The position numbers were made by a program, and so were the translations under genes. Under the pieces are notes generated by a model. The model was given only the letters and a program-made list of their open reading frames with translations. It was not told the origin of the DNA and did no database searches. This document shows positions 33,910 to 42,608 of a DNA stretch of 64,000 bases, piece by piece (positions within the stretch are counted from its first letter, which is position 1; every line of letters starts with the position of its first letter). The stretch spans positions 2,046,001 through 2,110,000 of the forward strand of contig NZ_AP022582.1 in assembly GCF_010731595.1 (NCBI RefSeq), given 5' to 3'. This DNA is from Mycobacterium seoulense. Its GTDB lineage: Bacteria > Actinomycetota > Actinomycetes > Mycobacteriales > Mycobacteriaceae.

Positions 33910-34740
33910 ATGGCGTCGTCCGCGATGAAGCGGCCCGCGACCCGGGTCGCCGACCTGCTCAACCCGGCGGCGCTGTTGTTGCCGGCCGCGAACGTGATCA
34001 TGCAGTTGTCCATGCCCGGCGTCGGTTATGGCGTGCTGGAGAGCCCGGTGGACAGCGGCAACGTCTACAAGCATCCGTTCAAACGGGCCCGCACCACCGG
34101 AACCTACCTGGCGGTCGCCACCATCGGGACCGAGTCCGATCGCGCGTTGATCCGCGCCGCCGTGGACACCGCGCACCGGCAGGTCCGTTCCACGCCGTCA
34201 AGCCCGGTGTCCTACAACGCCTTCGACCCCAAGCTGCAGCTCTGGGTGGCGTCGTGCCTGTACCGCTATTTCGTCGACCAGCACGAGTTCCTGCACGGCC
34301 CGCTCGACGACACCACCGCCGACGCCGTCTATCTCGACGCCGCGCGGCTGGCCACCACGCTGCAGGTGCCCGAACGGATGTGGCCGCCGGACCGGGCGGC
34401 ATTCGGCGAGTACTGGAAGCGCTCGCTCGACGAGCTGCGCATCGACCCGCCGGTGCGAGCGCATCTGCGCGGCGTGGCGTCGCTGGCGTTCTTGCCGTGG
34501 CCGTTGCGGATCCTCGCCGGCCGGTTCAACCTGTTCGCGACGACCGGGTTCTTGGCTCCGGAGTTTCGCGCGTTGATGCAGCTCGACTGGTCGCCGGGCC
34601 AACAGCGCCGGTTCGAGTGGCTGCTGTCCGCGCTGCGGCTGGCCGACCTCTTCCTGCCGCACGGGATCTGGCTCCTCGGTTACCAGGTTTACCTGTGGGA
34701 CATGCGTTTTCGCACCCGACGCGGTTGGCGGATCGTCTAG
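33910..34740 (+). CDS. oxygenase MpaB family (DUF2236) protein
   Basis: 276 residues of the DUF2236/MpaB family, heme-containing latex-clearing-like proteins of actinobacteria. Conserved landmarks: [38 protein letters not shown] with the family TxxY motif, and [19 protein letters not shown] followed by histidine-containing [10 protein letters not shown]. Corresponds to Rv2237. Members cleave polyisoprene or unknown lipids; substrate here unknown. It is divergent from cobD by 35 bp and its stop overlaps that of the convergent epoxide hydrolase gene. Confidence 0.85.
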
Positions 34741-35873
34741 GACCGCACCGTCGCGAAGAACGCGCGGACGTCCTCGACGAACAGCTCCGGTTGCTCGAAC
34801 GCGGCGAAGTGCCCACCGCGCGGCATGGCTGTCCAGTGCGTGATGTTGTAGACCGGCTCGCACCAGCTCCTCGGCGCCTTCAGCAGCTCGCCCGGGAAAG
34901 CCGCCACGCCCGTGGGCAATTCGACGCGGTCCAGCTGGCCCCACACCCTGAAGCTCTCCCAGTACAGGCGGGCCGAGGACGCGCCGGTGTCGGTCACCCA
35001 ATAGACCATCACGTTGTCCAGCAGCTCGTCGCGGGTGAACACGTTCTCGGGATGGCCGTCGCAATCGGCCCACGCCCAGAACTTCTCGACGATCCACGCC
35101 AGCTGCCCCACCGGCGAATCGGCCAGCCCGTAGCCCAGGGTCTGCGGCCGGGTGGACTGCTGCTTGGAATAGCCGGTGCCCCACTTCCGGTGGTCGGCCA
35201 GCGCGGCCATTGCCCGCAGCTCTTCCTCGGTCGGGTTCTTAAGGGACTCCGGCGTGGGCCGCCCGATCGGCATGTTGAGGTGGATCGCCGCGCAGTGGCC
35301 CTCGTTTCGCCCGATCTGCGTGGTCACCGCGGCGCCCCAGTCGCCGCCCTGGGCGCCGTAGCGGTCGTAGCCCAGGCGCAGCATCAACGTCTCCCAGGCC
35401 GCGGCGACCTTCTCCACACCCCAGCCCGTGCGCGTCGGCTTGCCGGAAAACCCGTATCCCGGCAGCGACGGGCAGACCACGTGGAAGGCGTCCTCGGCGC
35501 GCCCGGACGCCGGGTTCGTCAGCGGCTCGATCACCTTGTGGAACTCCACGATCGAGCCGGGCCAGCCGTGGGTGATCAGCAGCGGGAAGGCGCCCTCATG
35601 CGGCGAGCGCTGGTGGATGAAATGAACGTCCAGCCCGTCGATCTCGGTAACGAACTGGTCGAAGCGGTTCAGCGCGGCCTCGCGTGAGCGCCAGTCGTAC
35701 TCACCGGCCCAATAGGCGGCCAGCTCGCGGGTGTAGGCCAGCGGCATGCCCTGGCTCCAGTCGTCCACGCATTCGGCATCCGGCCAGCGGGTACGGGCGA
35801 GCCGCGCCCGCAGGTCGTCGAGCACCTCGTCCGGGACGTCGATACGAAAAGGTTCCACGGGTTCACCATCCAT
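34737..35873 (-). CDS. epoxide hydrolase (EHN-type alpha/beta hydrolase)
   Basis: 378 residues. The N-terminal EHN domain reads [18 protein letters not shown] and [18 protein letters not shown]; the alpha/beta-hydrolase core has the oxyanion motif [26 protein letters not shown], the nucleophile aspartate in [11 protein letters not shown], and a C-terminal catalytic histidine in [12 protein letters not shown]. Microsomal-type epoxide hydrolases open epoxides to diols. ATG 35873 gives the family start; the upstream frame lacks homology. A truncated copy of the same gene lies at 42.4-42.6 kb, 6.7 kb away on the same strand. Confidence 0.92.
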
Positions 35874-35916
35874 GCCCCCGAGGCTGCCACACGATCGTGC
35901 TGGCGTCGCGAGCTTT

Positions 35917-35958
35917 AACGCCACCGCGAAAATCGACACAAAGATTCGCGGTGGCGTT
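35917..35958 (-). terminator. perfect palindrome, terminator-like, of a repeated type
   Basis: 14-bp perfect inverted repeat AACGCCACCGCGAA / TTCGCGGTGGCGTT with a 14-base loop, between the DUF1330 stop and the epoxide hydrolase start. The left flank and arm resemble an element at 47944-47991. It probably ends transcription of the cupin-DUF1330 unit. Confidence 0.5.
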
Positions 35959-36014
35959 TTCCCCCGCAAACGGGGGTGCCCCCAGCCCGCAGCCCCAAGC
36001 GGGTGTTCGACCGG

Positions 36015-36407
36015 CTAGCTGAATTGCTCGGCGGCCATCCAGCTCGACGTCGCGATCAGATCGCCGCGGTCAAGGGCTGCGGCGCGGTGCTCGTGCACCC
36101 TGGCGTACTCCGGGGAGGTGACCATCTCCAAAAAGGCTGCCGGCGTGGGGTATTCGACGATCAGGATCGCATCCCACCATGGTTCCCGGCCGTCGCCGAT
36201 GACGACGCCCGGAGACGTGCCGCCGTAGCGGATCTTGGCGCCGACGCGATCCAGGTGTGGCGCGACTTCCGCCCCGTATTGCAGATAACGATCCAGGCCG
36301 CCGGGCTTCTTGAACTGCAACAGGTTGACCATCACGACCGGAGCGTCGGCCGGTCGCGCCGCCAGGGCGGCCACCTGCTCGGGGGTGGTCTCTACCGAAG
36401 TGCTCAT
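36015..36407 (-). CDS. DUF1330 domain protein
   Basis: 130 residues, a small ferredoxin-like alpha/beta dimeric-barrel protein. DUF1330 features are seen: VVMVNLLQFKKPGGLDRYLQY, the RYGG strand, WDAILIVEYPTPAAFLEMVTSPEYARVHEHRAAAL. AAGGAG precedes ATG 36407 by six bases. It lies 43 bp after the cupin gene, same strand, and is probably cotranscribed from the operator-bearing promoter at 37.1 kb. Function unknown; such proteins often accompany catabolic enzymes. Confidence 0.85.
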   Translation of the reverse strand: MSTSVETTPEQVAALAARPADAPVVMVNLLQFKKPGGLDRYLQYGAEVAPHLDRVGAKIRYGGTSPGVVIGDGREPWWDAILIVEYPTPAAFLEMVTSPEYARVHEHRAAALDRGDLIATSSWMAAEQFS

Positions 36408-36450: not shown

Positions 36451-37011
36451 TCATGCCTGCTTCGCCATCAAGCCGGCGGCTCCGCCGCCGATGTAGTTGA
36501 CCGGTCCCGCCTGTTGCGCCTCGGCGATCAACGGGGTCAGGTGACGGATCATCACCGCGTCCAGGACCGAGTGGAACTGACCGTCCTCGGTGAAGTTGAT
36601 GTTGGCTCCCTCGACGCGGATGAAGACGACCGTGTCCTCGGTGTTGGACTCGGGGCAGACGAAGGTGTGTACCGATCCGGCGGGCTCGTACAGGTAGGAA
36701 CCGGCGGTCTGTGGCTGGTCGGGGTACTCGAGGTAATACCAGCGACCCGCAAGGGTGTAGGCCTCGGCGACACCGGTGTGGTAGTGCACGGGTAGCTGCG
36801 CTCCCGGGCTGAGAACGGCCAGCACCACCCAGCATCCGGCCTCGAGATCGAGCCGAAGCGGCTTGAAATGCACTCCGGGCGCCAGCGCGTCGCGTAGCAG
36901 GGGGTTGTCGGACTCGTTGACCGTCAGCAGCTCACCCTGCGGCAGCGCGGTCAGCGGCAGCGGGGAGCCGGAACTTGTCTTGGCTGAGGTTGGTTCGGCG
37001 GCGAGCGTCAT
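36451..37011 (-). CDS. cupin protein, 2,4'-dihydroxyacetophenone dioxygenase-like
   Basis: 186 residues. The cupin fold carries a metal site: histidines and glutamate in LPVHYHTGVAEAYTLAGRWYY (H-x-H and E), and the second-motif histidine in AGSVHTFVCPE. The overall layout, with YLYEPAGSVHTF, resembles 2,4'-dihydroxyacetophenone dioxygenases and related ketone-cleaving or acetylacetone-type cupins. GGAAAG precedes ATG 37011. It is divergent from the AraC gene; operator A lies 95 bp upstream. Substrate not determined. Confidence 0.8.
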   Translation of the reverse strand: MTLAAEPTSAKTSSGSPLPLTALPQGELLTVNESDNPLLRDALAPGVHFKPLRLDLEAGCWVVLAVLSPGAQLPVHYHTGVAEAYTLAGRWYYLEYPDQPQTAGSYLYEPAGSVHTFVCPESNTEDTVVFIRVEGANINFTEDGQFHSVLDAVMIRHLTPLIAEAQQAGPVNYIGGGAAGLMAKQA

Positions 37012-37106: not shown

Positions 37107-37143
37107 TTGACCCTTGAAGACAAGCTTTTGGCTTTTCAGGACA
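37107..37143 (+). promoter_or_regulatory. operator A (tandem TTGRC-N7-GACA repeat), cupin/araC intergenic
   Basis: Two 16-bp direct repeats, TTGACCCTTGAAGACA and TTGGCTTTTCAGGACA, 5 bp apart (21-bp phase). It is 95 bp before the cupin start and 31 bp before the araC start. Same structure as 39730, 40960 and 42380. Confidence 0.75.
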
Positions 37144-37174
37144 TATCACCCGTCGGCGGCTAGCGTCTCGGGAT

Positions 37175-38200
37175 ATGTCGGTGGTGCGCGGCACGGCGCT
37201 GTCAAACTATCCGGAACTGGTCACCGATTTGGGCGGTGACCCGGAACGGTTGCTGCGCCGCGCGGGAATTCGGCCAACGGACATCGGCAAATACGAGGTG
37301 TTCGTGCCCCTGCGGGGAGTTGTTTTGGCGCTGGAGTCGGCCGCCGAAGAAACCGAAACACCGGATTTCGGCCGCCGCCTGGCTCAGCGACAGGGCATCG
37401 AGATCCTCGGCCCGGTGGGGGTGGCGGCCCGCACGGCGGCCACCGTGGGTGATGCGATGGCGATCTTCGGTACGTTCTTGGCCGCCTACAGCCCGGCCCT
37501 GTCGGTTCACGCGGCGCCGCTGCCGGACCGGCCCGAGCGCTCCTTTATGGAGTTCCAGATTCTCATGGAGCGGTTGCCGTCCGCTATCCAAAGTGTTGAG
37601 CTGTCCCTCGGCGTGATCCTGAAGGTGTTGCGGCTACTGCTCGGCGGGCAGTACTGCCCGCTGTCGGTGCACGTGCCCCACGAGCCGGTCACCCCCGCCG
37701 CGCAGTACCGTGAATACTTCGGGTGCAGGCCGTATTTCGCCGAGCCTGCCACCGGGTTCACCCTTCGAACCGCCGACTTGAGCGGCTCGCTTCGTCACGA
37801 CGAGCTGGCTCACCGCGCCATGGTCGAGTACCTCAGCACCCTGATCGGCCGGCGAGGCCCGGACATCAGCCAGTCGGTCCGCACCATTGCACGACAGCTG
37901 CTGCCCGCCGGCGCCGCCAAACTCGAGGTGATCGCTGCGCAGTTCAACGTCCATCCCAAGACGCTGCAGCGCAGGTTGGCCGACGAGGGCACAACGTTTT
38001 TCGAGGTGATCGACGATTTGCGGCGCGACACCGCCGAACACTACCTGCGCGACACCGACATCAACCTGTCGCACCTGACACGGGAACTCGGCTACACCGA
38101 GCAGAGCGTGCTGACCCGCTCGTGCAAACGCTGGTTCGGAATCGGGCCGGCGGCCTACCGGCGTGCGCTACGCTCCCGCAGACGTCCCGCGATCTCCTGA
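37175..38200 (+). CDS. AraC family transcriptional regulator (VirS/OruR-like)
   Basis: 341 residues. N-terminal ~200 residues form the Arabinose-binding_2-type sensor domain of the OruR/VirS group (LVTDLGGDPERLLRRAGI at the start, CPLSVHVPHEPVTP midway). The C-terminal AraC DNA-binding domain has two helix-turn-helices: LEVIAAQFNVHPKTLQRRLADEG (about 249-271) and INLSHLTRELGYTEQSVLTRSCKRWFG (about 297-323). AraC proteins of this type bind tandem direct repeats about two helical turns apart, which fits operator A in its own promoter and three further copies in the cluster. It is likely the regulator of the region. Confidence 0.92.
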   Translation: MSVVRGTALSNYPELVTDLGGDPERLLRRAGIRPTDIGKYEVFVPLRGVVLALESAAEETETPDFGRRLAQRQGIEILGPVGVAARTAATVGDAMAIFGTFLAAYSPALSVHAAPLPDRPERSFMEFQILMERLPSAIQSVELSLGVILKVLRLLLGGQYCPLSVHVPHEPVTPAAQYREYFGCRPYFAEPATGFTLRTADLSGSLRHDELAHRAMVEYLSTLIGRRGPDISQSVRTIARQLLPAGAAKLEVIAAQFNVHPKTLQRRLADEGTTFFEVIDDLRRDTAEHYLRDTDINLSHLTRELGYTEQSVLTRSCKRWFGIGPAAYRRALRSRRRPAIS

Positions 38201-38243
38201 TCGCACGACTGATCCCGCGGTTCGGCGACCTGGTGCGTGGTCA

Positions 38244-39599
38244 TCACAGTCCGACCGCCCGCTCCATGTCTTTGAGCGACGATTCCAGATGGCCGAGCAC
38301 GCGCTGCAGGTGCGGCACGGCGCGGGGGCATCCGACAAGGCCGAAGTCGAGACTGTCGGCACTGGTGGCCAGCGTGATGTTGAGGGCCTGCCCATCCACA
38401 GCGATCGACAACGGGTAGTTGCCGTCAAGGCGGGCGCCGTTGTAGTACAACGGATTCTGCACACCCGGGACGTTGGAAATACAGATGTTGAAGGGCGGCG
38501 GGGTCGCCGCGCCGAGGCCCGGAATCCCGCTGAAGGCCGCCGGCGCCAGCAAGGACACCCCCAGCGCCATCGCCTGAGCCCGCGGCAGCTGGGACAGCAC
38601 CTGCTTGTTGTCGCGCATCGACTCACGAATGGCGCGCAGGCGTTCTGCCGGGTCATCGAGATCGGTGGCCAGGTTGCACAGCACGCCCGAGACGACGTTC
38701 CCGCCGTCGGTGTCGCGCTCGGTGCGCAGGTTCACCGGAACCAGCGCGGTCAGCGGCTTGTCCGGCAGCGCGCTGTGGTCGGTGAGGTAGGCGCGCAGCG
38801 CGCCGGCGCACATGGCCAGAACGACATCGTTGACCGTCACCCCCGCGGCGTTCTTGACGCCCTTGATCCGTTCCAGCGGCCAGGACTGCGCCGCGCAACG
38901 CCGCGCCCCGCCGATCGGGACGTTCAGCATCGTGCGCGGAGCCCGGAACGGCAGGGTCATGTGCTGCTCGAGCAGCGCGGCGCGGGTGAGCGAGAGCGTT
39001 CCCGGGGCAAAGCCCGCCACGGCTCCGATGGCGCCCGCCAGCGTTGCACGGCGGCTGCGGCGCGCCCGCTGTCGGCCCTGCCGCGGCGGCGTTGCCCACG
39101 GGACCCGGATCTCGGTGTCCTGCGGGTCGGAACTCAACGCGCCCTGCAGCATTCGCAGTGCGGACACACCGTCGACGATCGCGTGATGCATCTTGGTGTA
39201 GACGGCGAACCGTCCATCGCCCAACCCCTCGATGAGATGCGTTTCCCACAGCGGGCGATGCCGATCGAGCAGGGTGCCGTGCAGCCGCGACGTCAAGTCG
39301 AGTAGCTCACGAACCCGACCGGGTGCGGGCAGCGCCGAGCGCCGTACGTGGTAGCTGAGGTCGGCGTCGTCGTCGACGGTCCACAACGCGTTGTTGAAGC
39401 CGCCGAGCGTCTTCGCCGGACGCTTCCGGAAGGCGGGCGCGACGTCGCGGCTCGCCATCATCGCCTGGTAAATGTCGCGGACGAACTCCGGTCCGGCCCC
39501 CTGTGGAGGTGTGAACAGCTGCAGGCCGCCGACGTGCATGGGATGCTCGCGCGACTCGGCCACCAAGCACAAGGCGTCGATCGGTGCGGTGAATTTCAT
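38244..39599 (-). CDS. wax ester synthase / diacylglycerol acyltransferase (WS/DGAT)
   Basis: 451 residues, typical of mycobacterial Tgs proteins that make triacylglycerol or wax ester from acyl-CoA. The catalytic HHxxxDG motif is KMHHAIVDGVSALRML (His pair near 137). Other conserved blocks are the N-terminal PIDALCLVAESREHPMHVGG, GVTVNDVVLAMCAGALR and ISNVPGVQNPLYYNGA. GAAGGG precedes ATG 39599. Operator B lies 130 bp upstream. It is convergent with the AraC gene, with 43 bp between stops. Confidence 0.95.
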   Translation of the reverse strand: MKFTAPIDALCLVAESREHPMHVGGLQLFTPPQGAGPEFVRDIYQAMMASRDVAPAFRKRPAKTLGGFNNALWTVDDDADLSYHVRRSALPAPGRVRELLDLTSRLHGTLLDRHRPLWETHLIEGLGDGRFAVYTKMHHAIVDGVSALRMLQGALSSDPQDTEIRVPWATPPRQGRQRARRSRRATLAGAIGAVAGFAPGTLSLTRAALLEQHMTLPFRAPRTMLNVPIGGARRCAAQSWPLERIKGVKNAAGVTVNDVVLAMCAGALRAYLTDHSALPDKPLTALVPVNLRTERDTDGGNVVSGVLCNLATDLDDPAERLRAIRESMRDNKQVLSQLPRAQAMALGVSLLAPAAFSGIPGLGAATPPPFNICISNVPGVQNPLYYNGARLDGNYPLSIAVDGQALNITLATSADSLDFGLVGCPRAVPHLQRVLGHLESSLKDMERAVGL

Positions 39600-39729
39600 G
39601 ACGACCCTTCGGTTTTGATAGATGATCGGCCAGCGGATGATAGGCAGCGCTCACTCATCGCCGCCACCGGTGGGCTGGCGGGTCGATGTTCCGCTGCACC
39701 CACTGTGCGTCACCGGCCATCCGGCCGTA

Positions 39730-39766
39730 TTGACCGAAAACGACATTTTGTTGGCATTTCAAGACA
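39730..39766 (+). promoter_or_regulatory. operator B upstream of the WS/DGAT gene
   Basis: TTGACCGAAAACGACA, 5 bp, TTGGCATTTCAAGACA. It is 130 bp before the DGAT start. The rest of the 39600-39963 gap has the hairpin at 39810 and otherwise nothing I can call. Confidence 0.75.
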
Positions 39767-39809
39767 GGCAGGAGCGTTACGCCTCTGGGGCCGCGCCCTG
39801 ATACCCTTC

Positions 39810-39842
39810 CGGCTCCGGCTGGTTTCATCCCCGCCGGAGCCG
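39810..39842 (-). terminator. terminator-like hairpin after the alpha/beta hydrolase gene
   Basis: Perfect 10-bp inverted repeat CGGCTCCGGC / GCCGGAGCCG, 13-base loop, about 120 bp downstream of the hydrolase stop on the minus strand and before operator B. Confidence 0.45.
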
Positions 39843-39963
39843 TCGGTTGATCCACGCCGCACAGCCGGATCCCGGAGAGTGCCGTGATAGCGAATACCGC
39901 GACGCGCCAGCCCACGCCGCCCCAGGCGGGTATGACGGTCGGGGCCCGGCCGCTGGCAAGTTG

Positions 39964-40893
39964 TCAGATGCGGGCGAGGAAGTTGCGAAGCCGTTCGAGC
40001 AGGATGTCGGGGCGCTGTTCGGCGAACCAGTGGCCCACCCCGTCGACCAGTTCCACGTCGAAGTCGCGGACCTGCGCCTGGTATCCGCGCAGCAGCGTGG
40101 GAGTGAGCACCGGGTCGTCGGTACCGTGTAGCCAGCGGACGGGAACCTCCACGCGGGCATCGGCGTATCGACCGGCAACCCACGGCAAGAACTCCCGCGT
40201 CAAAAAGGTGCGGTACCAACGCGATCCGGCGACAGCGTGGCCGGGTTCCCGCATGCGCCGCGCGTACAGCCAGAAATCGTCCCCGGGCATCGAAAAGCCG
40301 CCTCCCACCCACGAACTCAGCAGTCGCAGGAACCGGCCCTTGGGGTCGGCAATGACGCGTGGACCCACCAGCGGCAGTGCGATGGGAAGCTGATACCAGA
40401 ACCGCCACAGGTGGCGCAGCGTCGCCAGATCGGGTTTTAGCCAGGGCGCGACGGTGTTGACCCCGAAGTAACCCCTCACCATTTCGGGGTGGCGCAGCAT
40501 CATGATGAAGGAGACCGGTCCGCCCCAGTCGTGGGCGACGAGGGCTACCGGCTCGGCGCCCAGCCGGTCGAGCACGGCGGCCAGGTCGTCGGCCATGCCG
40601 ACCTTGCCGTACCGGGACGCCGGTGCTGAACTCCAGCCGGCGCCACGCAGATCCGGGCAGAGCACCCGGTACCCGTCGGCCGCCAGAGGCCCGATGAGCT
40701 CGCGCCACTCCCACCAATTCTGCGGGAAGCCGTGCACCAGCATCACCGGCGGCCCGTCGGCCGGTCCCGTTTCGGCCACGTGGATTCTGACGCCGCCGCC
40801 CACGTCCACAAACCGGTGGCTCACCCCGTCGAGTCGCGGCATTGACATCGTCGCGACGTCGAAACTCCCGGCGGGAATTGATTCGCTTGTCAT
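39964..40893 (-). CDS. alpha/beta hydrolase, epoxide-hydrolase/dehalogenase type
   Basis: 309 residues. Oxyanion motif MLVHGFPQNWWEW, PDLRGAGWSSAP, the nucleophile aspartate in LVAHDWGGPVSFIMML, and the catalytic histidine in VDGVGHWFAEQRPD place it with soluble epoxide hydrolases and haloalkane dehalogenases; an aspartate rather than serine nucleophile excludes a simple esterase. Start is ATG 40893, with Met16 an alternative. Operator C lies 66 bp upstream. In the proposed regulon it would act on epoxide or related intermediates; substrate unknown. Confidence 0.88.
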   Translation of the reverse strand: MTSESIPAGSFDVATMSMPRLDGVSHRFVDVGGGVRIHVAETGPADGPPVMLVHGFPQNWWEWRELIGPLAADGYRVLCPDLRGAGWSSAPASRYGKVGMADDLAAVLDRLGAEPVALVAHDWGGPVSFIMMLRHPEMVRGYFGVNTVAPWLKPDLATLRHLWRFWYQLPIALPLVGPRVIADPKGRFLRLLSSWVGGGFSMPGDDFWLYARRMREPGHAVAGSRWYRTFLTREFLPWVAGRYADARVEVPVRWLHGTDDPVLTPTLLRGYQAQVRDFDVELVDGVGHWFAEQRPDILLERLRNFLARI

Positions 40894-40959
40894 GGTCTCA
40901 CCTGTCGCTCACGAACCTCTCGTTAAGACACAGCGTGCGCCGGTGACCCCGAGGGAATC

Positions 40960-40996
40960 TTGACAGATCGGGACTGATATTTGACTTTTCGAGACG
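40960..40996 (+). promoter_or_regulatory. operator C upstream of the alpha/beta hydrolase gene
   Basis: TTGACAGATCGGGACT, 5 bp, TTGACTTTTCGAGACG. It is 66 bp before the hydrolase start and 17 bp from the end of an arylsulfatase remnant. Confidence 0.75.
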
Positions 40997-41012
40997 CAGC
41001 CCCCGTGCGGTG

Positions 41013-41282
41013 CTACTGCTTGACCATCGCGGCGTGGATAAGGTCCTCGGGCTTGATCAGGTGGTCGTGGCTGTCGTCGCCGATCGCGAGCTGCACCCAG
41101 GCGATGTCGCCGCTGAAACCGTTTCCGGCGGGGCCATAGTCCCGCGACGCCGGGGAGCCGGTGTCGGCGCCCACATCGCAGGCCCCGTCGGCCGAATAGG
41201 CCATCGGGATGGTGATCTCGACACGCCCGCTGCCGACGGGCTCGCCGTCGTAATTGAGGGTGACGGCGCCGGGACCGGACTG
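41013..41282 (-). pseudogene. arylsulfatase, C-terminal remnant
   Basis: About 89 codons that read as the C-terminal end of an arylsulfatase: VTLNYDGEPVGSGRVEITIP, then MAYSADGACDVGADTGSP and a lysine-glutamine end at TAG 41013-41015. The catalytic sulfatase domain is absent. Homology stops abruptly at 41282, where a plus-strand membrane-protein remnant begins. No start or promoter is associated, so it is a gene fragment left by rearrangement. Confidence 0.7.
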
Positions 41283-41450
41283 ATGCCCCGGTGGCTGGCA
41301 GTCACGAGCTACGTGGCCGCTGTGGCCGTGTTGGCCCTCACCGAGGTGAGCATGTGGGTGACGTTGGTCTTCCCCGCATGGGTGCTGCTCGTCAGTGGCT
41401 TGATCTTCGCCCGCTCACAACGCATCGACGAGCTAGCAGTCCAGGCTTGA
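41283..41450 (+). pseudogene. membrane-protein C-terminal remnant
   Basis: 55 codons encoding two hydrophobic helices (WLAVTSYVAAVAVLALTEVS and VTLVFPAWVLLVSGLIFARS) and a short polar tail. It looks like the last helices of a larger membrane protein. It abuts the arylsulfatase remnant tail-to-head at 41282/41283, so the upstream part is lost. The in-frame extension upstream (from 41010) is antisense to the arylsulfatase piece and not real. Could be a tiny intact protein, which seems less likely. Confidence 0.5.
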
Positions 41451-41483
41451 CGAAGCGAACCCGTTTCAAGCCAATGAATTTCG

Positions 41484-42308
41484 CTAGCCGCGGGTCATGA
41501 CCTTCGGAAGGACGCGGGCCAGGGGCTGCACCAGTCGAGGCGAAATCCTATGCAGCACATAGGGTGCCAGCACGTGCGTCCGCGGCGTGGCGACGATCAG
41601 CCGTGGGCGCGCGATCGCGTCGAGCACCGCGGCGGCGACGGTGTCCGGTGACGCGCCGTGCTTGTCGTAGAACGCCGCGATCTTCGCCTGTTCGGTGCTG
41701 AGGTCGCCGCGCATGGTCCCTTCCCGGACGATCGGAGTGTTGATGATGCCCGGGCACAGCGCGACGACGCGGATGCCGCGCGGCCGCAACTCGGCATTGA
41801 GGGCTTCACTCATCCCGACGACTCCGAACTTGGACGCGCAGTAGGGCGCCATCCGCGCGATGGGGTGCAGCCCCGCCTCGGACGCCGTGTTGATCACGGT
41901 GGCAGGGTGGCCTTGCTCGAGCATTCGAGGGACGAATGCCTGCACGCCGTAGGCGACGCCGAGCAGGTTGACCCCGATGACGCGCTGCCAGTCCTCGACG
42001 GTGGTGGCGTCGATGTCCGCTCCGTGGCCGATGCCGGCGTTGTTGTGCAGGATGTCGACACGCCCGTCCTGGTCGAAGACGGCCTTGGCCAATGCCTCGA
42101 CCTCTTCCGGGTGGCTCACGTCGATCGCATGATCGACTGCGCCGCCACCTATTTCACCAGCCACGGCGGCGGCCGCGTCGGCATTGATGTCGGCGACGTG
42201 GACTTTGGCCCCATGCCGGGCCAGCAGGCGCGCGGTCGCCGCACCGATCCCCGATCCCGCGCCGGTGACGACGGCGATCTTGCCGGTGAGGTTGATGTTC
42301 TTTGCCAT
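41484..42308 (-). CDS. SDR-family oxidoreductase
   Basis: 274 residues of a classical short-chain dehydrogenase. Cofactor motif VVTGAGSGIGAATARLL near the N-terminus, aspartate in VHVADINAD suggesting NAD(H), NNAG in ILHNNAGIGHGA, the catalytic serine in INTASEAGL and YxxxK in YCASKFGVVG. The C-terminal PYVLHRISPRLVQPLARVLPK extension is common in mycobacterial SDRs near lipases and monooxygenases. GGAAGGAAG precedes ATG 42308; operator D is 71 bp upstream. The frame upstream belongs to an epoxide hydrolase fragment, not this gene. Confidence 0.93.
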   Translation of the reverse strand: MAKNINLTGKIAVVTGAGSGIGAATARLLARHGAKVHVADINADAAAAVAGEIGGGAVDHAIDVSHPEEVEALAKAVFDQDGRVDILHNNAGIGHGADIDATTVEDWQRVIGVNLLGVAYGVQAFVPRMLEQGHPATVINTASEAGLHPIARMAPYCASKFGVVGMSEALNAELRPRGIRVVALCPGIINTPIVREGTMRGDLSTEQAKIAAFYDKHGASPDTVAAAVLDAIARPRLIVATPRTHVLAPYVLHRISPRLVQPLARVLPKVMTRG

Positions 42309-42379
42309 GGTGCTTCCTTCCAGACACGTCGATTCATGTGGCGTGACGCCAACACTGACGCGCAACCGGGCCTGGAGTC

Positions 42380-42416
42380 TTGATGAATCAGGACAGGTTT
42401 TTGACAATTCGGCACA
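42380..42416 (+). promoter_or_regulatory. operator D upstream of the SDR gene
   Basis: TTGATGAATCAGGACA, 5 bp, TTGACAATTCGGCACA. It is 71 bp before the SDR start and 6 bp from the point where the epoxide hydrolase remnant breaks off. Confidence 0.75.
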
Positions 42417-42422
42417 GGCGAA

Positions 42423-42608
42423 CAGCGCGGCCTCACTTGAGCGCCAGTCGTATTCGTCGGCCCAATAGCCGGCCAGGTCGCGGGTGTATGCCAGCGGCAT
42501 GCCCTGGCTCCAGTCGTCCACGCATTCGGCTTCCGGCCAACGCGTGCGCCGCAGGCGCGAGCGCAGATCTTCCAGGACATCGTCGCAGACGTCGATGCGA
42601 AACGGCAT
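42423..42608 (-). pseudogene. epoxide hydrolase, N-terminal remnant
   Basis: ATG 42608 opens 62 codons nearly matching the start of the intact epoxide hydrolase at 34737-35873: [38 protein letters not shown] and WADEYDWRSSEAAL. Similarity, also clear in the DNA, ends at 42423, beyond which lies operator D of the SDR gene. The alpha/beta-hydrolase core is absent. The frame runs on by chance into the SDR gene, but there is no sign of a functional fusion. Confidence 0.8.

What the first reader, a model, noticed from the sequence alone, without database searches (positions are those of the whole stretch)
37107..42416. Four copies of a 37-bp tandem operator define a local AraC regulon
Sites at 37107-37143, 39730-39766, 40960-40996 and 42380-42416 share one exact architecture: a 16-bp element TTGRC-N7-GACA, 5 bp, and the same element again, giving a 21-bp phase. 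The strongest positions are TTGA/TTGRC and GACA (last site has CACA). No length differs among the four. Each lies 66-130 bp upstream of a minus-strand gene (cupin, DGAT, alpha/beta hydrolase, SDR), and site A also lies 31 bp upstream of the only AraC gene in the region. Tandem direct repeats two helical turns apart are what AraC-type dimers bind. The genes would form one regulon for lipid or epoxide/ketone metabolism. The architecture is seen directly; the regulator assignment is inference. I do not recall this operator being described.
Basis: partly seen in the sequence, partly recalled or inferred. Interest (0 to 1): 0.82.

Follow-up and report, generated by a model that had tools for sequence, protein, structure and literature searches.

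The report
Shared operator of VirS-like mycobacterial regulators
Four copies of a 37-base control site in this Mycobacterium are very probably the docking sites of one VirS-like AraC regulator, and the same site lies beside many genes of that regulator family in the genus, which makes a drug-relevant gene switch easy to test.

Summary
Four 37-bp tandem repeats (21-bp phase) lie at the stated places. A matrix built only from other genomes scores them 28-38 bits; nothing else in the window exceeds 6. They are the four best pattern hits in the 5.53-Mb genome.

The same element stands upstream of VirS-like AraC genes across the genus: of 117 such genes, 93 carry it within 250 bp, 80 ending exactly at the start codon; controls 0 of 117 and 1 of 116. 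Three genes checked as VirS orthologues carry it or a variant.

On the target side a -10-like box (.A...T) lies 21-22 nt from the operator in 92 of 94 regulator-adjacent and 32 of 36 other sites; controls average 5.8 and 1.5. All four window sites have it at 22 nt.

Best reading: a VirS-like dimer binds each site and activates the minus-strand gene in class II (XylS-like) geometry. The regulon is split up; site B looks like the operator left after loss of a monooxygenase gene.

Binding and direction of control are inferred. My paper searches showed no description of this operator.

The parts
37107..37143 (+). Operator A, between divergent cupin (-) and AraC (+) genes
   Evidence: matrix 33.4 bits; counterparts in L039, L040, L041
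39730..39766 (+). Operator B, upstream of the WS/DGAT gene; counterpart of the site before a monooxygenase gene in L039
   Evidence: 28.4 bits; promoter alignment; not returned by the calibrated model
40960..40996 (+). Operator C, upstream of the alpha/beta hydrolase gene (GACT/GACG variants)
   Evidence: 38.0 bits; counterpart 63 bp before the orthologue in L041
42380..42416 (+). Operator D, upstream of the SDR gene (TTGAT/CACA variants)
   Evidence: 30.8 bits; weaker counterpart (20.3 bits) before the orthologue in L041
37079..37084 (-). Putative -10 (CATTCT), 22 nt from operator A
   Evidence: family-wide test
39702..39707 (-). Putative -10 (CACAGT), 22 nt from operator B
   Evidence: shared with the L039 promoter
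40932..40937 (-). Putative -10 (CACGCT), 22 nt from operator C
42352..42357 (-). Putative -10 (CAGTGT), 22 nt from operator D
37161..37166 (+). Putative -10 (TAGCGT) of the AraC gene, 17 nt after operator A; TAGCAT in L074 and L075
37175..38200 (+). VirS-like AraC regulator, 341 aa (Arabinose_bd PF12625 + HTH_18 PF12833)
36451..37011 (-). Cupin (Cupin_7), first gene behind operator A
36015..36407 (-). DUF1330 protein, 130 aa, probably same operon as the cupin (inference)
34737..35969 (-). Epoxide hydrolase (EHN + Abhydrolase), same direction, probably same operon (inference)
38244..39599 (-). Wax ester synthase/DGAT
39964..40893 (-). Alpha/beta hydrolase
41484..42308 (-). Short-chain dehydrogenase/reductase

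Best explanation
The four sites are operators of the VirS-like AraC regulator encoded at 37175-38200. Each 16-bp half-site (TTGAC, then GACA one helical turn on) is read by the two helix-turn-helix motifs of one subunit, and two subunits sit in tandem 21 bp apart. Bound there, the dimer touches the -35 region of the minus-strand promoter, whose -10 lies exactly 22 nt further on. It activates the cupin/epoxide-hydrolase operon, the DGAT, the hydrolase and the SDR genes as one dispersed regulon related to the virS/mymA lipid-modifying system. Site A also reaches into the -35 region of the regulator's own promoter, so the regulator feeds back on itself. In 80 of 117 family genes the operator ends at the start codon and coincides with what looks like the regulator's own leaderless promoter, so binding there should shut it off. 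Shown here: the sites, their rarity, their tracking of the regulator family, the conserved spacing. Inferred: binding, activation of targets, autoregulation, ligand (unknown, probably lipid-like).
For: Independent matrix recovers exactly the four sites. 93 of 117 VirS-like genes have the element within 250 bp, 80 abutting the start codon; controls 0 of 117 and 1 of 116. Half-site pairs at spacing 21 in 88 of 117 genes, next commonest spacing in 3. Regulator and site co-occur: 21 of 26 against 1 of 34 genus genomes, Fisher 1.6e-10, not corrected for ancestry; the exception has a VirS orthologue (498 bits to solved VirS) at the site; 0 of 40 genomes of other genera match. -10-like .A...T at 21-22 nt in 92 of 94 and 32 of 36 sites, the window's four included. 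Column constraints fit a promoter embedded in abutting operators: A24 70 of 70 against 27 of 36, T28 70 of 70 against 29 of 36 distinct elements. Counterparts beside orthologous genes in L041 and L039. The only other PF12625 gene in the genome has no such element in its fetched 3.6-kb stretch. The protein matches solved VirS nearly over its length, E 1.3e-56.
Against: No binding or expression data. 24 of 117 VirS-like genes lack a site with at most 2 mismatches within 250 bp. Of these 24, 4 have a weaker variant near the gene (20-30 bits), 12 have a strong site (42-56 bits) elsewhere in the fetched stretch, 2 only a weak one on the other strand, and 6 (L088, L097, L098, L142, L158, L174) none above 12 bits; the contigs of L088, L097 and L098 end 0.3-4.7 kb past the gene. 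L040 has only site A in 21 kb. L039 has no site directly before its DGAT gene. D's counterpart is weak. The calibrated model did not return B. For VirS, alpibectir lowers its action on the virS-mymA region in a reporter assay yet raises virS and mymA expression (PMC13234193, passages), which fits repression rather than activation of the target. An acid- and lipid-induced VirS regulon (PMC9044949, passages) is compatible with either sign. Rows are related sequences, so p-values overstate.
Confidence: 0.85

Rival explanations
1. Same operator and regulator, but the dimer is a repressor of the target genes, released by its ligand, as the alpibectir data suggest for VirS.
For: PMC13234193 passages: alpibectir binds VirS, reduces its action on the virS-mymA region, and virS and mymA rise. 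Where the operator abuts the regulator's start codon it must cover that core promoter.
Against: On the target side the operator ends at or just inside the -35 and leaves the -10 free at a fixed 21-22 nt in 124 of 130 sites, as expected of an activator that touches RNA polymerase; a repressor needs no such fixed phase. The target -35 is poor (GAC only), typical of activator-dependent promoters (inference).
Confidence: 0.3
2. The repeats are bound by a different regulator, and the AraC gene is only one of its targets.
For: Binding was not tested; nine places in this genome match HTH_18.
Against: The element follows this AraC family across the genus and abuts its start codon in 80 of 117 cases; 33 of 34 genus genomes without a homologue at E <= 1e-60 gave no model match, and the other has a VirS orthologue; VirS orthologues carry a variant.
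Confidence: 0.05
3. The repeats are not an operator but paired -35-like TTGACA promoter elements or a repeat carried along by duplications.
For: TTGACA is a -35 consensus and is probably used as such for the regulator where the operator abuts it. Gene remnants near sites C and D show past rearrangement.
Against: Sites B, C and D stand before genes on the other strand; GACA and the 21-bp phase are not explained by a promoter; non-core bases differ between the four sites; counterparts beside orthologues. Not coding: 5 of 70 distinct abutting elements have an in-frame stop.
Confidence: 0.03

Closest known systems
VirS / mymA operon of Mycobacterium tuberculosis
   Same: Same protein family (8rcx, E 1.3e-56). 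VirS orthologues of other mycobacteria (L182, L187, L194: 440-498 bits to 8rcx) carry the same operator plan 9-20 nt before their start codon, with the -10-like box on the divergent side; in L194 the divergent gene is an FMO-like monooxygenase. Related target enzymes; the mymA gene list beyond its 7-gene size is recalled.
   Different: The window protein is not the VirS orthologue (195.5 bits). Here four separate operators and no monooxygenase gene. The M. tuberculosis operator itself was not looked at.
XylS / Pm
   Same: Two 15-bp direct repeats, each box A + box B, a dimer that interacts with RNA polymerase (PMC5481539, passages). The 21-bp phase and 2-bp overlap with the -35 are recalled.
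   Different: Different half-site (TGCA-N6-GGTA). No promoter of the regulator inside the operator is mentioned in the passages read.
SphR of Pseudomonas aeruginosa
   Same: AraC-family, sphingosine ligand, three promoters each with two direct-repeat half-sites; consensus TGNCCSNNRNNSNCC, 6-8 bp apart (PMC3900636, passages).
   Different: Different consensus; variable gap, against a fixed 5 bp here.
Rv1395 / CYP132 of M. tuberculosis
   Same: AraC-family activator of a divergent cytochrome gene (PMC3900636 passage); autorepression is recalled from Recchi 2003, of which only the title was seen. An Arabinose_bd AraC gene divergent from a P450 gene in L029 carries a look-alike 37-bp tandem.
   Different: Different half-site letters; whether L029's gene is the Rv1395 orthologue was not tested.

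Membership tests
AraC/XylS-family regulator (Arabinose_bd branch) | PF12625 N-domain and PF12833 double helix-turn-helix domain above curated cut-offs | tested here: met
   132.6 bits (cut-off 27.6) and 59.6 bits (33.6)
AraC/XylS-type operator | Two direct-repeat half-sites about two helical turns apart | tested here: met
   21-bp spacing in 88 of 117 family genes, next commonest spacing in 3
Class II (XylS-like) activation | Operator end at a fixed distance from the -10, touching the -35 | tested here: met
   Sequence only.A...T at 21-22 nt in 92 of 94 and 32 of 36 sites; transcription starts not mapped
Class II (XylS-like) activation | Regulator raises transcription of the target | not testable with these tools
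   No expression data for this organism
VirS orthologue | As close to VirS as the VirS group, and divergent from a mymA-type monooxygenase gene | tested here: not met
   195.5 bits to 8rcx against 440, 441 and 498 for L187, L182, L194; neighbour is a cupin gene. It may work like VirS but is a paralogue
SphR-type operator | Half-site TGNCCSNNRNNSNCC | tested here: not met
   Compared by eye with the column counts: the base after TTGAC is A or T in 98% of 70 elements, where SphR has C

The most novel reading that the evidence does not exclude
One 37-bp element is the common switch of the VirS-like family in Mycobacterium. Read one way it is a complete leaderless promoter for the regulator (TTGACA, 17 nt, GACANT, 7 nt, ATG). 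Read the other way it is the class II activator site of the divergent operon with a -10 at a fixed 21-22 nt. Binding therefore turns targets on and the regulator off. The rule also predicts the VirS operator that alpibectir releases, and lets regulons be read from sequence across the genus.
Probability: 0.55. Interest if true: 0.72.

Novelty: new variant of a known kind. Interest (0 to 1): 0.6.

Why it matters
VirS is the target of the clinical candidate alpibectir (PMC13234193, passages). Its operator sequence is not given in the passages I read of that paper, and none of the titles or abstract starts listed by the ten paper searches announces it; the library is open-access only. A rule valid across the family would let regulons of many uncharacterised mycobacterial regulators be predicted from sequence, and it supports the regulator-operator pairing in this window far more firmly than the four sites alone could.

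Tried and rejected
Coding origin of the abutting repeat: the TTG codons are in frame with the ATG, but 5 of 70 distinct elements have in-frame stops, and sites B-D serve genes on the other strand. Chance: rejected. Another Arabinose_bd regulator of the genome as the binder: no such element in its stretch. Site B as an unconserved site: its L039 counterpart (14.8 bits) stands before a monooxygenase gene (FMO-like, nearest solved relatives phenylacetone monooxygenases) followed by DGAT. The window genome's best match to that protein is 50%. So B is read as the operator left after loss of that gene (inference). One apparent exception to co-occurrence (G033) proved to be a VirS orthologue beside a monooxygenase gene. 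The sequence-model search did not return B; the matrix and pattern did; the 100-genome model search used stricter filters. Target families were tallied from an automatic choice of the longest ORF near each site, and representatives of 9 of the 23 clusters were scanned. It chose a spurious ORF for site C, so those tallies are rough. Structure prediction was not run: solved VirS structures exist.
Full report
Check of the observation. The strict core is exact in A and B only; C and D each depart at two core bases. Window shuffles give 0.15 expected against 4 seen. In the whole genome, 8 places come within 3 mismatches: the four sites with 0, 0, 1 and 2, and four others with 3 each.

The regulator. 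The plus-strand gene at 37175-38200 is an AraC-family protein with Arabinose_bd and HTH_18 domains and matches solved M. tuberculosis VirS over 2-329 (E 1.3e-56). The genome has two Arabinose_bd matches and nine HTH_18 matches. The other Arabinose_bd gene's fetched 3.6-kb stretch has no such element (best matrix score -13).

The family-wide element. Of 248 genus genomes, 94 hold a homologue at E <= 1e-60. I fetched 115 stretches around the matches. With the window they gave 117 regulator genes. Within 250 bp upstream, 93 of 117 have the tandem with at most 2 of 14 fixed positions wrong, and 80 have it ending exactly at the start codon. The reversed pattern gives 0 of 117 and a downstream control 1 of 116. 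Pairs of half-sites occur at spacing 21 in 88 genes; the next commonest spacing occurs in 3. A matrix from 49 representatives of 70 distinct abutting operators, none from the window, scores the window sites 33.4, 28.4, 38.0 and 30.8 bits. No other window position exceeds 6. Over 1.90 Mb (window plus the 115 stretches) it gives 130 hits at 20 bits against 1 for the reversed matrix. Of the 24 genes without a close pattern match, 16 still have a matrix site, near the gene (4, weaker) or elsewhere in the stretch (12, strong); 2 have only a weak one on the other strand and 6 none.

Co-occurrence. Among 100 relatives, 22 genomes have a calibrated-model match at E <= 0.01, all in the genus, 0 of 40 from other genera. 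Of the 60 genus genomes, 21 of 26 with the homologue have a site, and 1 of 34 without; Fisher 1.6e-10, not corrected for ancestry. The exception (G033, L194) has a more distant regulator, 37% identical to the window's but 498 bits to solved VirS, divergent from an FMO-like monooxygenase of 500 aa, with the element between them.

Promoter geometry. I noticed by eye that on the minus strand all four window sites have a C-A-N3-T box exactly 22 nt after the operator. The 70 distinct abutting operators of other genomes show the same box as conserved columns at the same place, with a conserved GAC directly after the operator. Over all 130 sites at 20 bits or more (the window's four included).A...T stands at 21 or 22 nt in 92 of 94 regulator-adjacent and 32 of 36 other sites; other offset pairs average 5.8 and 1.5, maxima 12 and 4. 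This is the layout of a class II activator such as XylS, whose tandem 15-bp repeats are described in PMC5481539 (passages); its exact overlap with the -35 is recalled.

The regulator's own promoter. Where the element abuts the ATG, it reads TTGACA, 17 nt, GACANT, 7 nt, ATG: a promoter for a leaderless message. Positions 24 (A) and 28 (T), the fixed letters of such a -10, are invariant in the 70 abutting elements but not in 36 others, which were the distinct non-adjacent sites plus site A and its two nearest counterparts (27 and 29 of 36; Fisher 3e-5 and 3e-4; ancestry not corrected). In the window clade (window, L074, L075) the regulator has its own TAGCRT box 17-18 nt beyond the operator instead.

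Conservation beside orthologues. L039 (Mycobacterium sp. E183), L040 (M. bohemicum) and L041 (sp. Marseille-P9652) keep site A before the AraC orthologue (24-26 bits). L041 keeps C before the hydrolase (34.5 bits) and a weak D before the SDR (20.3 bits). L040 has no other site in 21 kb. In L039 the second site (14.8 bits) stands before a 498-aa monooxygenase gene followed in the same direction by the DGAT orthologue. Its promoter aligns with site B's, sharing the -10. The protein is FMO-like, nearest solved relatives phenylacetone monooxygenases, and 50% identical to the gene beside the VirS orthologue of L194, hence MymA-like. The window genome's best match to it is 50%. Site B is therefore best read as the old operator, now directly before DGAT. 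In L109 cupin and DGAT homologues follow one operator in a row. The window's four operators thus look like a split-up version of an operon found elsewhere (inference).

Kinship with VirS. L182, L187 and L194 are the VirS group by score: 441, 440 and 498 bits to solved VirS. L181 and L183-L186 look alike in the DNA-binding domain but were not compared with VirS. All eight carry a variant of the element 9-20 nt before the start codon, and all eight have a .A...T box at 21-22 nt on the divergent side. L183 and L184 score below 20 bits, and L194 came later; these three are outside the 130-site counts. The alpibectir paper (PMC13234193; passages) used the virS-mymA intergenic region as operator; no passage I read gives its sequence.

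Mechanism. Shown: sites, family link, spacing, conservation. Inferred: tandem dimer binding, activation of the targets, autoregulation. The VirS drug data fit ligand-relieved repression at least as well, so the sign of control is the weakest step; I hold about 0.65 for activation given that the operator reading is right. The ligand is unknown; the target enzymes (epoxide hydrolase, DGAT, hydrolase, SDR) suggest a lipid or oxygenated hydrophobic compound.

Novelty. Tandem operators are the standard for AraC/XylS regulators. What I did not find in print (ten searches; open-access library; listings, and passages of four papers) are the sequence of this family's operator, its fixed two-sided promoter geometry, and its use as the regulator's own promoter.

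Noticed in passing
window 42423-42605 (-): Remnant of a second epoxide hydrolase gene (61 aa, 84% identical to the intact one at 34737-35969), broken off right beside operator D.
   Followed up: partly
window 41025-41270 (-): Weak remnant resembling the C-terminus of a sulfatase (35% over 83 aa, E 1e-4); a cluster of 16 operator-linked ORFs in other genomes has a sulfatase as its scanned representative.
   Followed up: partly
L029:1501-1537 (-): A different Arabinose_bd AraC gene, divergent from a P450 gene, carries a look-alike 37-bp tandem with other half-site letters. Similar sequences turn up in G009, G017, G021, G023, G026 and G029, so tandem operators of this length may extend to other AraC branches.
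   Followed up: partly
L195:8105, L197:8404: Strong operators (39 and 38 bits) with no AraC homologue found in the fetched 16 kb, before a thiamine-pyrophosphate enzyme gene and near two DGAT genes: regulons may reach beyond the regulator locus.
   Followed up: partly
G002 (five places): Five identical 3-mismatch hits in one 4.0-Mb genome, probably inside a repeated element.
   Followed up: no
L142, L158, L174: Regulator genes whose upstream region keeps the first half-site but has a diverged second half-site; a natural test of half-site and protein co-change.
   Followed up: no
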